From assembly GCF_000720925.1 (NCBI RefSeq), contig NZ_JOEE01000001.1:620001-684000 (forward strand): 64,000 nucleotides of DNA, given 5' to 3'. The notes under the pieces are model-generated. The model was not told where the DNA came from and searched no databases. It saw only the letters and a list, made by a program, of their open reading frames with translations. The translations under genes and the position numbers were made by a program. Source of the stretch: Phycicoccus jejuensis (GTDB lineage Bacteria; Actinomycetota; Actinomycetes; Actinomycetales; Dermatophilaceae). Position 1 is the first letter of the stretch; the number at the start of each line of letters is the position of its first letter. This document shows, piece after piece, positions 23,818-46,942 of this stretch.

Positions 23818-24183
23818 ATGGAGGGCTACCTCGCCGTCGCGGCGGTCGTCCTCGCGGGCGTGCTCCTCGTGACCGCCGCGATGGTCGTCCGTCGCCTCGT
23901 CGCGCCCCGCGCCGCCGACGCCGCCGGCCGCGCGACCTACGAGTCGGGCGTCGACCCGGTCGGCACCGGCTGGGCGCAGTCGCAGGTGCGCTACCTGTCC
24001 TTCGCGTTCCTCTACGTCGTCTTCGCCGTCGACGCCGTCTACCTCTTCCCGTGGGCGCTCGTCCTGCGCGACGCCGACCTCGGGGTCGCCTCGCTCGTCG
24101 AGGTCGTCGTCTTCGTCGGCGTCCTGCTCCTCGGGCTCGTCCACGCCGGCCGGCGCGGCCTGCTCCGCTGGGACCTGCGATGA
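23818..24183 (+). CDS. nuoA2: NADH-quinone oxidoreductase subunit A, second copy
   Basis: This is a 121-residue, three-helix membrane subunit at the junction of the peripheral and membrane arms. The YESGVDPVG loop after helix 1, with its conserved Glu, and FLYVVFAVDAVYLFPWA in helix 2 are diagnostic of NuoA. It starts a second partial complex I set, followed after 13 bases by nuoB2. The first operon's nuoA lies outside the window. The start is fixed by the leaderless -10 and the first helix. Confidence 0.93.
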   Translation: MEGYLAVAAVVLAGVLLVTAAMVVRRLVAPRAADAAGRATYESGVDPVGTGWAQSQVRYLSFAFLYVVFAVDAVYLFPWALVLRDADLGVASLVEVVVFVGVLLLGLVHAGRRGLLRWDLR

Positions 24184-24196
24184 CGGGGGAGCGCCG

Positions 24197-44013: not shown

Positions 44014-45485
44014 GCCTGCTCCTCGCGCTCCCCGCCGCGGTCGGCCTCTGGCTGGTCAGCGGCGGGCGTGCGCTGCCCGTGCGACCGGCGCGGCTGCTCG
44101 CGGCGTCGACCGCCGGCCTCACGCTCGCCCTCGCCGTCCTCGTCGCCGTCACCCGCCCGGGGGTCGACCGCGCCTGGCTGCCCGAGCTCGGGGTCCGGTG
44201 GTCCTTCGGCGTCGACGGCATCTCGGTGCCGCTCGTGCTGCTCACCGCCCTCATGGGCGTCGTCGTCACCGCGCACGCCTGGGTCGAGGTGCCGCGCGGC
44301 GGCACCCCGGCGACCTTCCTCGGCTGCCTGCTGCTCGTCGAGGCCGGGGCGCTCGCGACGTTCACCGCCCGCGACGCCGTCCTCTTCCTCGTCGCCTTCG
44401 AGGTCGTCCTCGTCCCGATGTGGGTGCTCATCGGCCGCTACGGCGACGCCCGCGACCCGCGCGCCCGCACCGAGGCCGCGCAGCGCTTCGTCCTCTACAC
44501 CGCGGTGGGGTCGACGACGATGCTCGTCGGCATCCTCCTGCTCGTCCTCTCGGCCGGGACCGCGGACCTGCGCGAGCTCGCCGGCGGGGCCGGTGCGGCG
44601 CTCGCGCCGGGTACCCAGCTGGCCGTCGCCGCCCTGCTCGTCGCCGGGCTGGCCGTCAAGGTCCCGGTCTTCCCGCTGCACACCTGGCTGCCGCCGGCGC
44701 ACACGACGGCCCCGACCGCCGGGTCGGTCCTGCTCGCGGCCGTGCTGCTCAAGATGGGCACCTACGGCCTGGTCCGGCTGCCCGTCGCCACCGTTCCCGA
44801 CGGGTTCGGCCGGCTCGCGCCGGTGCTCGCCGTCGCGGGCGCGGTCGGCATCGTCTGGGGCGGGCTCGTCTGCCTCGTCGAGCGCGACCTCAAGCGGCTC
44901 GTCGCGTACTCGTCGGTCGCGCACATGGGCTTCGTCGTCCTCGCGCTGGCCAGCGGGTCGCAGACCGGGCTGCAGGCCGCGCTCTACGCCAACATCGCGC
45001 ACGGCGTCGTCTCGGCGCTGCTCTTCGTGCTCGTCGGCGGCCTCAAGCACCGGTGGGGGAGCGTCGACCTCACGGTCCGCCGGCCCGCCCTGCGCGAGAC
45101 CTCGCCCCGGCTCGGGTTCGTCCTCCTCCTCGGTCTCGCCGGGAGCCTCGGCCTGCCGGGCCTCGCGGGCTTCTGGGGTGAGCTCCTCGCGATCTACGCG
45201 GCCTGGCGGCCGGCTGATGACCGCCCCGGTGCCGTCCTCCTCTCGTGCGCCGTCGTCGCCGCGGTCGGCGCTGCGCTCGCGGCGGCCTACGCCCTGCGCG
45301 TCGCCGGCCTCGTGTGGTCCGGCGACCGACCCGACCCCGAGTCGCCCGCGACCCCCGACACCGTCGGCGTCGAGCGCTGGGTGCTGGGCGGCCTCTCCGC
45401 GCTCGTCGTCCTCCTCGGGGTCGCCCCGATGCTCCTGCTGTCGGTGACGCACGACGCCGTCGCCGCGCTGGGGGGTGCGCGATGA
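44010..45485 (+). CDS. nuoM2: NADH-quinone oxidoreductase subunit M, second copy
   Basis: This 491-residue antiporter-like subunit conserves the Glu in VAFEVVLVPMWVLIG, the TM7 Lys in LAVKVPVFPLHTWLP, the TM8 Lys in VLLKMGTYGLVRL, the ERDLKRLVAYSSVAHMGF motif and the TM12 Glu in GFWGELLAIY. I chose GTG 44010 because it forms a GTGA overlap with nuoL2; GTG 44004 is also in frame. Confidence 0.94.
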   Translation: MSLLLALPAAVGLWLVSGGRALPVRPARLLAASTAGLTLALAVLVAVTRPGVDRAWLPELGVRWSFGVDGISVPLVLLTALMGVVVTAHAWVEVPRGGTPATFLGCLLLVEAGALATFTARDAVLFLVAFEVVLVPMWVLIGRYGDARDPRARTEAAQRFVLYTAVGSTTMLVGILLLVLSAGTADLRELAGGAGAALAPGTQLAVAALLVAGLAVKVPVFPLHTWLPPAHTTAPTAGSVLLAAVLLKMGTYGLVRLPVATVPDGFGRLAPVLAVAGAVGIVWGGLVCLVERDLKRLVAYSSVAHMGFVVLALASGSQTGLQAALYANIAHGVVSALLFVLVGGLKHRWGSVDLTVRRPALRETSPRLGFVLLLGLAGSLGLPGLAGFWGELLAIYAAWRPADDRPGAVLLSCAVVAAVGAALAAAYALRVAGLVWSGDRPDPESPATPDTVGVERWVLGGLSALVVLLGVAPMLLLSVTHDAVAALGGAR

Positions 45486-46942
45486 CCTCGCTCGTGTCCG
45501 TCGACGCTGTCGTCCTCGCCCCGGCCCTGGCTCCCGTCCTCGGGGTCGTCCTCGTCCTCGTCGGCGACGCCGTGCGACCCGGGCGCTCGCGGTGGGCGCT
45601 GCCGCTGGCGGGGGTCGTTCTGGTCGCCGGTGCGCTGGTCGCGCTGCGCGGCAGCCTCGGCTCCGAGCTCGAGCCCCTGCGCACCCTCTGCCTCCCGGCG
45701 CCCGACGGTGCCTGCCTCTGGACGGCCGGCCCGCGCACCTCGACGCTCCAGGCCGCGGTCCTCCTCGCCTCGGCGGCCGCCCTCGCCCTGCTGCACGACG
45801 GCCGGGCCGGCCGGCGCGACACCGCCGTCACCGCCACCCTGCTCCTGGCGTCCGCGACCGGCGGGGTCGCCGTCGCCGCCGCCCGCGACCTCGGGTCGTG
45901 GCTCGTCGCGCTCGAGCTCGCCACCGTCCCCGTCGTCGCGCTCGTCGCGCTGCGCGGCACCCGGTCCGCCGCGCACGGCGCGCTGAGCCTGCTCGTCACG
46001 TCCCTCGCGTCGTTCGCGCTCCTCGTCCTCGGGGCGGCCCTCTGGCTCACCGCGACCGCCGACGCGACGTTCTCGTCCGAGGCGGTCGCCGCCGCGTGGG
46101 CCGACCCCGACCGCCGGCGCGTCCTCGTCCTCGCCGTGACCCTGCTCGTCGCCGGGCTCGGCTTCAAGCTCTCTCTCGTGCCGTTCCACGCGTGGACCCC
46201 CCAGGCCTACGCCGCCGCCGACCTCGGCACCACCCTGTTCCTCGCCGCCGCCTCCAAGGTCTCGGCCGTGGCGGCGCTCCTCGTCGTCGTGTCCGCCCTC
46301 GTCGGGGCGGCGCCGGGGCCGGCCGTCGCCGTCCTGCTCGGCCTGCCCGCCGTCGCGTCGCTCCTGCTCGGCACCGTCGTCGCCCTGCGCCAGGACGACC
46401 CGGTCCGCCTGCTCGCGTGGTCGACGATCGCGCAGGCCGGATGGGTCGTCGTGCCGCTGACGGCGGTCTCGGCGACCGGCCTGCGGGCCGCGGCCGCCTA
46501 CGTCGTCACCTACGCCGCGGCGACGACCGTGGCCCTCGCCGTCGTCGCCCGCACCGGCGCCCGGACGCTGGCCGGCACCCGCGGGCTGCTGCGCCGCGAC
46601 CCGCTCGCCGGCGGCGCCCTCGGCCTGGCCCTGCTCGTCCTCGCCGGGCTGCCGCCGGGCGTCATCGGGCTCGTCGTCAAGGTCCTCGCGCTGTCGGCGC
46701 CGGTCGCGGCAGGGGTCTGGCCGGTGGCCGCGGCGGGCGTCGTCGCCGTCGTCCTCGGGCTCGCGGTGTACCTGCGATGGGTCGCCGTCCTCCTGGCCCG
46801 TCCGGAGCCCGCCGACGGCCCGGGCGAGGAGGCCGGCGACACCGCGCACGGCCGCTCGACGCGCGTGGTCGTCGTCGCCGGCACCGTGGTCCTCGTGCTG
46901 GTCAGCGCCCTGCCGCAGCTCCTCGTCGGCGGCCTGTCCTGA
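45482..46942 (+). CDS. nuoN2: NADH-quinone oxidoreductase subunit N, second copy
   Basis: This 486-residue antiporter-like subunit is the most diverged of the set. The membrane Glu in LVALELATVPVVAL, the Lys of GFKLSLVPFHAWTPQAY, the following SKVSAV Lys and the TM12-like Lys in GLVVKVLAL are present. The usual DVKRLLAYSS motif reads DDPVRLLAWST, so a conserved Lys is replaced by Val. It closes the second complex I set. htpX follows 47 bases later. Confidence 0.9.
   Translation: MTSLVSVDAVVLAPALAPVLGVVLVLVGDAVRPGRSRWALPLAGVVLVAGALVALRGSLGSELEPLRTLCLPAPDGACLWTAGPRTSTLQAAVLLASAAALALLHDGRAGRRDTAVTATLLLASATGGVAVAAARDLGSWLVALELATVPVVALVALRGTRSAAHGALSLLVTSLASFALLVLGAALWLTATADATFSSEAVAAAWADPDRRRVLVLAVTLLVAGLGFKLSLVPFHAWTPQAYAAADLGTTLFLAAASKVSAVAALLVVVSALVGAAPGPAVAVLLGLPAVASLLLGTVVALRQDDPVRLLAWSTIAQAGWVVVPLTAVSATGLRAAAAYVVTYAAATTVALAVVARTGARTLAGTRGLLRRDPLAGGALGLALLVLAGLPPGVIGLVVKVLALSAPVAAGVWPVAAAGVVAVVLGLAVYLRWVAVLLARPEPADGPGEEAGDTAHGRSTRVVVVAGTVVLVLVSALPQLLVGGLS

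What the first reader, a model, noticed from the sequence alone, without database searches (positions are those of the whole stretch)
23818..46942. Second complex I gene set with A, B, C, H-N but no D, E, F or G in the window
Sequence shows nuoA2, B2, C2, H2, I2, J2, K2, L2, M2 and N2, all clearly different from the main operon copies seen (H-N), with Fe-S ligands and nearly all proton-path residues intact. Family knowledge: eleven-subunit relatives lacking EFG exist and use donors other than NADH, but they retain NuoD, which builds the quinone site with NuoB. Here nuoC2 is followed directly by nuoH2. Inference: the second complex borrows NuoD from the main operon, has a NuoD gene elsewhere, or has a different quinone-site partner.
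Basis: partly seen in the sequence, partly recalled or inferred. Interest (0 to 1): 0.75.

Follow-up and report, generated by a model that had tools for sequence, protein, structure and literature searches.

The report
Second complex I with displaced nuoD2
This actinobacterium carries a second respiratory complex I without the NADH-reading part, its missing quinone-site gene sits elsewhere in the genome with an altered active-site residue, and some relatives keep only the part of this complex that sits outside the membrane.

Summary
In detail: the window carries nuoA2, B2, C2, H2-N2 with no D, E, F or G. NuoD2 is not missing. It lies on the same contig about 88 kb upstream of nuoA2 (C1:554132-555262, minus strand). 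In other classes of the phylum its ortholog sits between nuoC2 and nuoH2; a separated nuoD2 is already described for Streptomyces (PMC3765725, PMC8388888, passages). So this is an 11-subunit complex I without NADH module and with one displaced gene.

Two things beyond the finding look new. (1) In NuoD2 the quinone-headgroup tyrosine (Thermus Nqo4 Tyr87) is tryptophan in 88 of 89 loci and 359 of 359 database homologs, against tyrosine in 131 of 131 other NuoDs examined; the Trp rows sampled form one clade. (2) Of 88 class genomes with nuoD2, 58 have NuoH2, but in 26 only nuoB2-C2-I2 remain (plus nuoD2 elsewhere), with FeS ligands kept, purifying selection and membrane-contact parts lost. The Trp-type Q-module apparently works without the proton pump.

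A ferredoxin donor fed by neighbouring KorAB is plausible but unproven.

The parts
23818..24183 (+). nuoA2
   Evidence: PF00507 E 5e-25
24197..24778 (+). nuoB2, N2-cluster subunit, 4 Cys ligands present
   Evidence: PF01058 E 1e-28; alignment to solved NuoB chains
24775..38382 (+). 14-kb block of unrelated genes between nuoB2 and nuoC2 (DUF2568, PhoX, Big/fn3 giant, MoxR-type ATPase, DUF58, TgpA-like), absent at this place in the sister genus
39216..39737 (+). nuoC2
   Evidence: PF00329 E 7e-26
39734..40690 (+). nuoH2; Val at the bovine ND1 Glu202 position, His in the usual ERK motif
   Evidence: PF00146 E 5e-97
40684..41313 (+). nuoI2, two CxxCxxCxxxC motifs
   Evidence: Fer4 domains
41310..41828 (+). 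nuoJ2
   Evidence: PF00499
41825..42139 (+). nuoK2
   Evidence: PF00420
42136..44013 (+). nuoL2
   Evidence: PF00361/PF00662
44010..45485 (+). nuoM2
   Evidence: PF00361 E 4e-66
45482..46942 (+). nuoN2
   Evidence: PF00361 E 3e-37; 31% identity to main NuoN
17972..20930 (-). korBA, 2-oxoacid:acceptor oxidoreductase beta and alpha, divergent upstream neighbour (starts approximate)
   Evidence: TIGR03710 655 bits (cut-off 483) for alpha; TIGR02177 260.6 bits (just under its cut-off 261.9) for beta
46990..47877 (+). htpX (M48 protease), downstream neighbour found beside many nuo2 and reduced clusters
   Evidence: NF002839 474 bits
1..7659 (+). end of the main 14-subunit nuo operon (H-N); nuoA-G lie upstream of the window

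Best explanation
nuoA2B2 + nuoC2HIJKLMN2 in the window, together with nuoD2 at C1:554132-555262 (88 kb upstream, minus strand), encode an 11-subunit complex I without the NADH-reading NuoEFG module. Shown: all eleven genes are present, with dN/dS below 1 for each against the sister genus; nuoD2 goes with nuo2, not with the main operon. Inferred: the complex takes electrons from a low-potential carrier, most likely ferredoxin reduced by neighbouring KorAB (2-oxoacid oxidation), passes them through N6a-N6b-N2 to the His38/Trp87 site, reduces menaquinone there and pumps protons through H2-N2. The quinone-site Tyr87-to-Trp change means that chemistry at the site must differ from the standard Tyr/His proton donation. 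Step confidences: D2 belongs to nuo2 0.95; no NADH input 0.9; ferredoxin-type donor 0.7; KorAB as main source 0.45; menaquinone as acceptor in the full complex 0.65.
For: NuoD2 found in own genome. In other classes D2 lies between C2 and H2 in an A-B-C-D-H..N cluster with no NuoF or NuoG hit (15 of 20 loci L057-L076). Co-occurrence: of 60 class genomes with NuoH2 at E <= 1e-70, 58 have NuoD2; the 2 without are 72% and 80% complete. All 59 genomes with a full-length NuoD2 match of 76% identity or more have NuoH2 (55) or NuoB2 (4: G062, G172, G218, G307). Of 28 further nuoD2 genomes, 27 have a second NuoB. Same-family G139 lacks both. dN/dS 0.17-0.67 against G085. FeS ligands present. No second NuoEFG: the other NuoF-like hits of the genome are a formate dehydrogenase gene beside FdhA/FdsD domains and a weak partial one. 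KorA divergent and upstream of nuo2, within 21 kb, in 40 of the 41 NuoH2 genomes where both are on one contig.
Against: Protein-level assembly and the donor are not shown. KorAB linkage is weak evidence: KorA also sits 17-34 kb downstream of nuoD1 in 8 genomes without NuoD2 (no nuo2 beside KorA in the 6 looked at: G208, G193, G168, G159, G191, G192), and G274, a complete genome with full nuo2, has no KorA at the threshold used. G022 (90% complete, another class) has a nuo2 cluster but no NuoD2 was found. Loss of the Tyr87 hydroxyl, of Asp139 in part of the clade and of NuoH Glu202 could mean that the acceptor is not a quinone.
Confidence: 0.8

Rival explanations
1. Nuo2 shares NuoD1 of the main operon, and nuoD2 serves something else.
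For: NuoD1 is encoded close by and is a bona fide NuoD; G022 has nuo2 with no NuoD2 found in a 90% complete genome.
Against: D2 and nuo2 co-occur with few exceptions; in 15 loci of other classes D2 is inside the nuo2 cluster; D2 has its own clade.
Confidence: 0.04
2. The main job of the Trp-type module is done by the peripheral quartet NuoBCDI2 alone (a cytoplasmic FeS oxidoreductase tied to 2-oxoacid oxidation, or acting on a soluble substrate at the His38/Trp site); the membrane arm is an option that some lineages keep.
For: 26 of 88 nuoD2 genomes in the class have B2-C2-I2 without H2 or J2-N2 beside them (I2 seen in 25); three full/reduced changes on the NuoD2 tree; four NuoB Cys in 24 of 26 by pattern and in the other two by eye, NuoI ligands in 25 of 25; dN/dS 0.08-0.44; the His/Trp block of NuoD2 is nearly invariant in reduced forms.
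Against: Loci of other classes have the full set, so the pump is probably ancestral, not an addition. The quartet's substrate and partners are unknown.
Confidence: 0.35
3. In reduced genomes NuoBCDI2 docks on the main membrane arm (A1, H1, J1-N1) as an exchangeable ferredoxin-reading peripheral arm.
For: All 21 reduced genomes searched keep a main NuoH; it would explain loss of the duplicate arm.
Against: The parts that touch the membrane arm are the ones lost: room for 12-28 residues before the first NuoI cysteine against 47 or more in full systems, and the NuoB cavity/NuoH-contact segment is 27-28% identical to the full consensus against 79-81% for the cluster-binding end.
Confidence: 0.12
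4. nuo2 is a decaying duplicate, as the 14-kb interruption suggests, and reduced clusters are stages of loss.
For: G062 keeps only a broken NuoH2 remnant; L2, N2 and J2 are the least constrained in the window (dN/dS 0.52-0.67); many reduced NuoD2 have long branches.
Against: All eleven reading frames here are open; ligands are kept across divergent reduced families; an unlinked nuoD2 is retained with them.
Confidence: 0.1

Closest known systems
Streptomyces second nuo cluster (nuoA2, B2, H2-N2 with separate nuoD2)
   Same: Same genes, nuoD2 separate, no NuoEFG; data said to suggest one operon (PMC3765725, PMC8388888, passages read).
   Different: Those passages name no nuoC2; a NuoC2 is present in all 20 class contexts looked at. 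In this window a 14-kb block splits A2B2 from C2-N2. The Trp site and the reduced clusters are not in the passages read.
[quoted passage not shown] Desulfitobacterium, PMC11238625, passages)
   Same: A, B, C, D, H-N without E, F, G; ferredoxin proposed as donor.
   Different: D not in the cluster; Tyr87 replaced by Trp. All 80 NuoDs of the genome-collection scan (77 not labelled Actinobacteria) have Tyr; the Desulfitobacterium protein itself was not fetched.
Cyanobacterial NDH-1 (PMC7021789, passages)
   Same: Fd-N6a-N6b-N2-quinone, no NuoEFG.
   Different: NdhH keeps Tyr (Tyr72); has photosynthesis-specific subunits not looked for here.
MBS/MBH of Pyrococcus (PMC7684303, passages)
   Same: NuoBCDI-like core working without quinone chemistry at the Nqo4 H38/Y87 site.
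   Different: MBS lacks both residues; NuoD2 keeps His38. NuoD2 has three Cys and no CxxC pair for NiFe (sequence).

Membership tests
11-subunit complex I (Nuo without the N-module) | Eleven subunits A, B, C, D, H-N encoded | tested here: met
   Ten in the window, NuoD2 at C1:554132-555262
11-subunit complex I (Nuo without the N-module) | No dedicated NuoE, F, G | tested here: met
   None beside nuo2; of three NuoF-like places in the genome one is the main operon, one a formate dehydrogenase, one a weak partial hit. A second NuoE or NuoG was not searched genome-wide
11-subunit complex I (Nuo without the N-module) | N6a, N6b and N2 cluster ligands | tested here: met
11-subunit complex I (Nuo without the N-module) | Quinone-site His38 and Tyr87 in NuoD | tested here: not met
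   His38 kept, Tyr87 is Trp. Expected from the canonical mechanism rather than defining for the family; it lowers certainty about acceptor chemistry, not about subunit content
11-subunit complex I (Nuo without the N-module) | Proton-path Lys/Glu in L, M, N, K and Glu chain in H | tested here: met
   Judged by eye against the main copies, except the NuoH2 Glu202-equivalent, which is Val; A2 and J2 not examined
11-subunit complex I (Nuo without the N-module) | Ferredoxin or other non-NADH donor | not testable with these tools
   KorAB neighbour only
[NiFe] hydrogenase, group 4 | CxxC pairs binding NiFe in the large subunit | tested here: not met
   Three Cys in NuoD2, none in CxxC (sequence)
Streptomyces-type nuo2 | nuoD2 outside an A2B2..N2 cluster without E, F, G | tested here: met

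The most novel reading that the evidence does not exclude
Actinomycetes hold a working 'half complex I': a NuoBCDI2 quartet lacking the membrane arm, descended from the Trp-type 11-subunit complex and often next to KorAB, that moves electrons from 2-oxoacid oxidation through N6a-N6b-N2 to a rebuilt His/Trp site acting on a non-quinone or freely diffusing acceptor. The full complex in this window would be the same module still attached to a proton pump, a natural test of whether complex I needs its quinone-site tyrosine.
Probability: 0.45. Interest if true: 0.85.

Novelty: new variant of a known kind. Interest (0 to 1): 0.62.

Why it matters
How quinone chemistry drives proton pumping in complex I is still argued, and the tyrosine next to the headgroup is central to that argument. 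A large natural clade in which it is tryptophan, in cells that as a rule also carry a Tyr-type complex I, gives a direct comparison. Separate losses of the pump with retention of the FeS quartet would show that a complex I peripheral arm can have a job of its own, which bears on how complex I was assembled in evolution.

Tried and rejected
KorAB linkage as proof of a KOR-ferredoxin-Nuo2 chain: rejected as proof, because KorA sits beside the main nuo operon also where no NuoD2 is found (8 genomes) and G274 has nuo2 without KorA.

Loss of the arginine that stabilises anionic Tyr87 (Nqo6 Arg83, or 49-kDa Arg85 in bovine; PMC5552823, section 8 read): considered as a partner change of Trp87; not supported, since NuoD2 has Arg at the bovine-type place (HRG) and NuoB2 has Thr, as the paper says of E. 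coli and bovine.

NuoH2 not found in 25 divergent nuoD2 genomes and in G062, G172, G218, G307: first read as a scoring or threshold miss. A second NuoB was then found in all of these but G336, and reading the loci showed reduced clusters in 26 genomes, G199 included. My earlier list of 'NO nuo2' genomes with KorA held 14 genomes; 6 of them (G182, G198, G185, G167, G175, G199) turned out reduced and were taken out, leaving 8.

My notes put nuoD2 65 kb from nuoA2; it is 65 kb from the window start and 88 kb from nuoA2.

Signature-column search over A, B, C, D, H, I, J, K (my cut-offs: 93% of Tyr-type rows, at most 5% of Trp-type rows): six columns, four in NuoD, one each in NuoB and NuoH. I read them as quinone-site or N2 neighbours from sequence position; only D-Tyr87 and D-Asp139 are tied to the site by papers read.

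Rows dropped: before the NuoB segment count, G062, G307, L045 and L259 were left out, and one row (L254) was in a wrong frame; one search repeated it on 21 reduced and 20 full rows with nearly the same result. The tree used 100 of 180 rows (10 of 30 close class NuoD2, 40 of 40 other NuoD2, 40 of 80 outside, 10 of 30 NuoD1); that used 68 rows, not all nuoD2 genomes.

Sampling limit: the 80 loci came from a scan whose first row was a Tyr-type NuoD and are the best 80 of a capped list, so a Trp-type NuoD in another phylum is not excluded. Literature on the Trp and on a stand-alone quartet: nothing found in the listings (one open-access library, word searches). Yarrowia Y144 mutant work is recalled, not read.
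Full report
What is there. The window is C1:620001-684000 of a 3.99-Mb, 97-contig genome; among the named close relatives of its NuoD2 are Phycicoccus, Knoellia and Nostocoides, so I take it for a Dermatophilaceae/Intrasporangiaceae-type actinobacterium. It holds nuoH-N of the main operon (1-7659), korBA on the minus strand (about 17972-20930), nuoA2B2 (23818-24778), a 14-kb block of unrelated genes, nuoC2-H2-I2-J2-K2-L2-M2-N2 (39216-46942) with overlapping ends, and htpX. 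Identity of second to main copies is 27-51%. The 14-kb block is local: in the sister genus G085 A2-B2-C2-H2 are contiguous (L037).

The missing NuoD. A PF00346 search of the whole genome finds NuoD1 (C1:613 kb) and a second NuoD at C1:554132-555262, minus strand, 65 kb before the window and 88 kb before nuoA2. It matches NuoD models of NCBIfam (best E 2e-111; over the cut-off of one model, PRK06075, under those of the others) and stands among housekeeping genes (folate genes and, by reading, tilS and ftsH on one side, panC on the other). Among 246 class genomes, 87 have a NuoD2 at E <= 1e-90, plus G199 at 1.2e-88. Of 60 with NuoH2 at E <= 1e-70, 58 have NuoD2; the two others are incomplete (72% and 80%). 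In other classes the NuoD2 ortholog lies between nuoC2 and nuoH2 in one A-B-C-D-H..N cluster without NuoF or NuoG hits in 15 of the 20 loci fetched (L057, L058, L061, L063-L074; L076 is a Tyr-type cluster; L059, L060, L062, L075 show D2 alone). In family f12 (another class) A2-B2-C2-H2-I2 is again continuous without D2 in 8 of 8 loci, followed by htpX in the 7 that reach so far (L287-L294); D2 lies elsewhere in 7 of these genomes and was not found in G022. So nuoD2 left the operon, once or more than once. That it is separate in Streptomyces is in print: nuoA2, B2, D2, H2-N2, nuoD2 apart, no N-module, data suggesting one operon (PMC3765725 and PMC8388888, passages).

The altered quinone site. 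Aligned without gaps around the site to Thermus Nqo4 (2fug_4), NuoD2 keeps His38 but has Trp at Tyr87. Tyr87 (bovine Tyr108) and His38 (His59) are the residues held to ligate and protonate the quinone headgroup (PMC9120487, PMC7684303, PMC5552823; passages). Trp is found in 30 of 30 class loci L007-L036 (own genome included), 39 of 40 loci L057-L096 and 19 of 19 of L267-L286 that cover the column (L286 is a fragment): 88 of 89 loci from 88 genomes (G062 fetched twice). It is also in 359 of 359 database proteins of three searches, which list only the best 120 each. The one Tyr (L076, G131) is not in the Trp clade. Tyr is found in 80 of 80 NuoD loci of a genome-collection scan, three of them labelled Actinobacteria, in 30 of 30 NuoD1 loci of the class and in 20 of 20 weaker NuoDs of the phylum. 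In a tree of 100 NuoD rows the 49 Trp rows are one side of one branch (SH-aLRT 100), needing one Tyr/Trp change. NuoH2 has Val or Ile at the bovine ND1 Glu202 position in 35 of 35 Trp-type contexts, and Glu in L076 (the number rests on the 25-residue spacing to Glu227 and on recall). The Asp139 position is Glu in 30 of 30 L007-L036 and mixed in L057-L096; it is also Glu in the 30 NuoD1. Over eight subunits only six columns separate Trp-type from Tyr-type systems at my cut-offs, four of them in NuoD.

Reduced systems. Many genomes with divergent nuoD2 gave no NuoH2. A second NuoB exists in 27 of 28 tested (all but G336), and their loci show nuoB2-nuoC2-nuoI2 together, htpX following in 11, without H2 or J2-N2 hits beside them; an A2 hit only in G062 (several stretches end at contig ends; in G307 I2 lies 4 kb after C2). 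Tally of 88 nuoD2 genomes of the class sample: 58 with NuoH2, 26 reduced (I2 seen in 25; the contig of G375 ends in C2), 4 undetermined (G172, G176, G218, G336; G176 and G218 have an A2 and look full). PF00146 finds a single NuoH in 16 of 21 reduced genomes searched; in the other five (G062, G167, G175, G189, G349) the extra hits are weaker relatives (E 5e-40 to 2e-27, probably group 4 hydrogenase type; my reading) or short pieces, among them a 53-codon remnant at the nuo2 place in G062. Six full controls have a second NuoH at 1.4e-97 or better; G139, without nuo2, has one. FeS ligands are kept: four NuoB Cys in 24 of 26 by pattern and in the other two by eye, NuoI eight Cys in 25 of 25. NuoD2 keeps Trp and His38 in 26 of 26. 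What touches the membrane is lost: there is room for only 12-28 residues before the first NuoI cysteine in 23 of 25 reduced loci (G062 and G307 cannot be judged), against 47 or more in 21 of 21 full loci; the NuoB segment after the CC motif is 27-28% identical to the full consensus, against 79-81% for the cluster-binding end. dN/dS between reduced relatives is 0.08-0.44 over B, C, I, D in four pairs (one value not computable, dS saturated in the pair G215/G185). On the NuoD2 tree three full/reduced changes are needed and forced by starred branches. With full outgroup classes as root these are three losses, though the tool notes that three changes may also be one gain and two losses. G307 is reduced while two congeners are full, and G062 lies inside the order of this window. 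G062 keeps B2, C2, I2 and D2 with a broken NuoH2.

Donor. KorAB is divergent from nuo2 and upstream in 40 of 41 NuoH2 genomes with both on one contig (39 within 15 kb, the window 21 kb; G241 1.6 Mb), on other contigs in 10, not listed in 9 (the list is cut), and in the same stretch as the cluster in 19 of 26 reduced loci. But KorA also lies 17-34 kb downstream of nuoD1 in 8 genomes without NuoD2, and 190 of 246 class genomes have it, so the neighbourhood may be inherited. No NuoF partner beyond the main one was found except that of a formate dehydrogenase and a weak partial hit.

Verdict. The gap in the operon is real and explained by a displaced nuoD2 that goes with nuo2: a known arrangement. 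The Tyr-to-Trp quinone site and the pump-less NuoBCDI2 quartets appear to be undescribed as far as the word searches of one open-access library reach, and they make this a new variant of complex I worth bench work.

Noticed in passing
window 24775-38382: A 14-kb block (DUF2568, PhoX, 2080-aa Big/fn3 protein, MoxR-type ATPase, DUF58, TgpA-like transglutaminase) splits nuoB2 from nuoC2; nuo2 is also interrupted elsewhere, e.g. 7 kb between A2 and B2 in L038 and 5 kb between H2 and I2 in L048.
   Followed up: partly
L235 (G062) 7534-11075: Freshly reduced nuo2: A2, B2, C2, a NuoH2 remnant in pieces, I2, htpX; J2-N2 gone; nuoD2 intact elsewhere.
   Followed up: yes
L295 (G000:C3:42001-58000) 6489-11352: NuoF-like plus molybdopterin FdhA-like and FdsD domains: an NAD-type formate dehydrogenase in this genome.
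   Followed up: partly
L076 (G131): A nuo cluster with Tyr-type NuoD and Glu in NuoH, without NuoF/G hits, in the same phylum; it groups with a Coriobacteriia NuoD, not with the Trp clade.
   Followed up: partly
window 46990-47877 and L042, L046, L056, L238, L239, L241, L252-L255, L287, L288, L290-L294: htpX (M48 protease) is a recurrent downstream neighbour of nuo2 and of the reduced cluster, and lies near korBA also where nuo2 is absent (L227-L229, L231).
   Followed up: no
L237, L239, L241, L253 (G213, G198, G239, G227): In this family a 2-kb stretch of unidentified sequence lies between korA and the reduced B2-C2-I2 cluster.
   Followed up: no
L291 (G022): A nuo2 cluster without D2 in a 90% complete genome in which no NuoD2 was found.
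   Followed up: no
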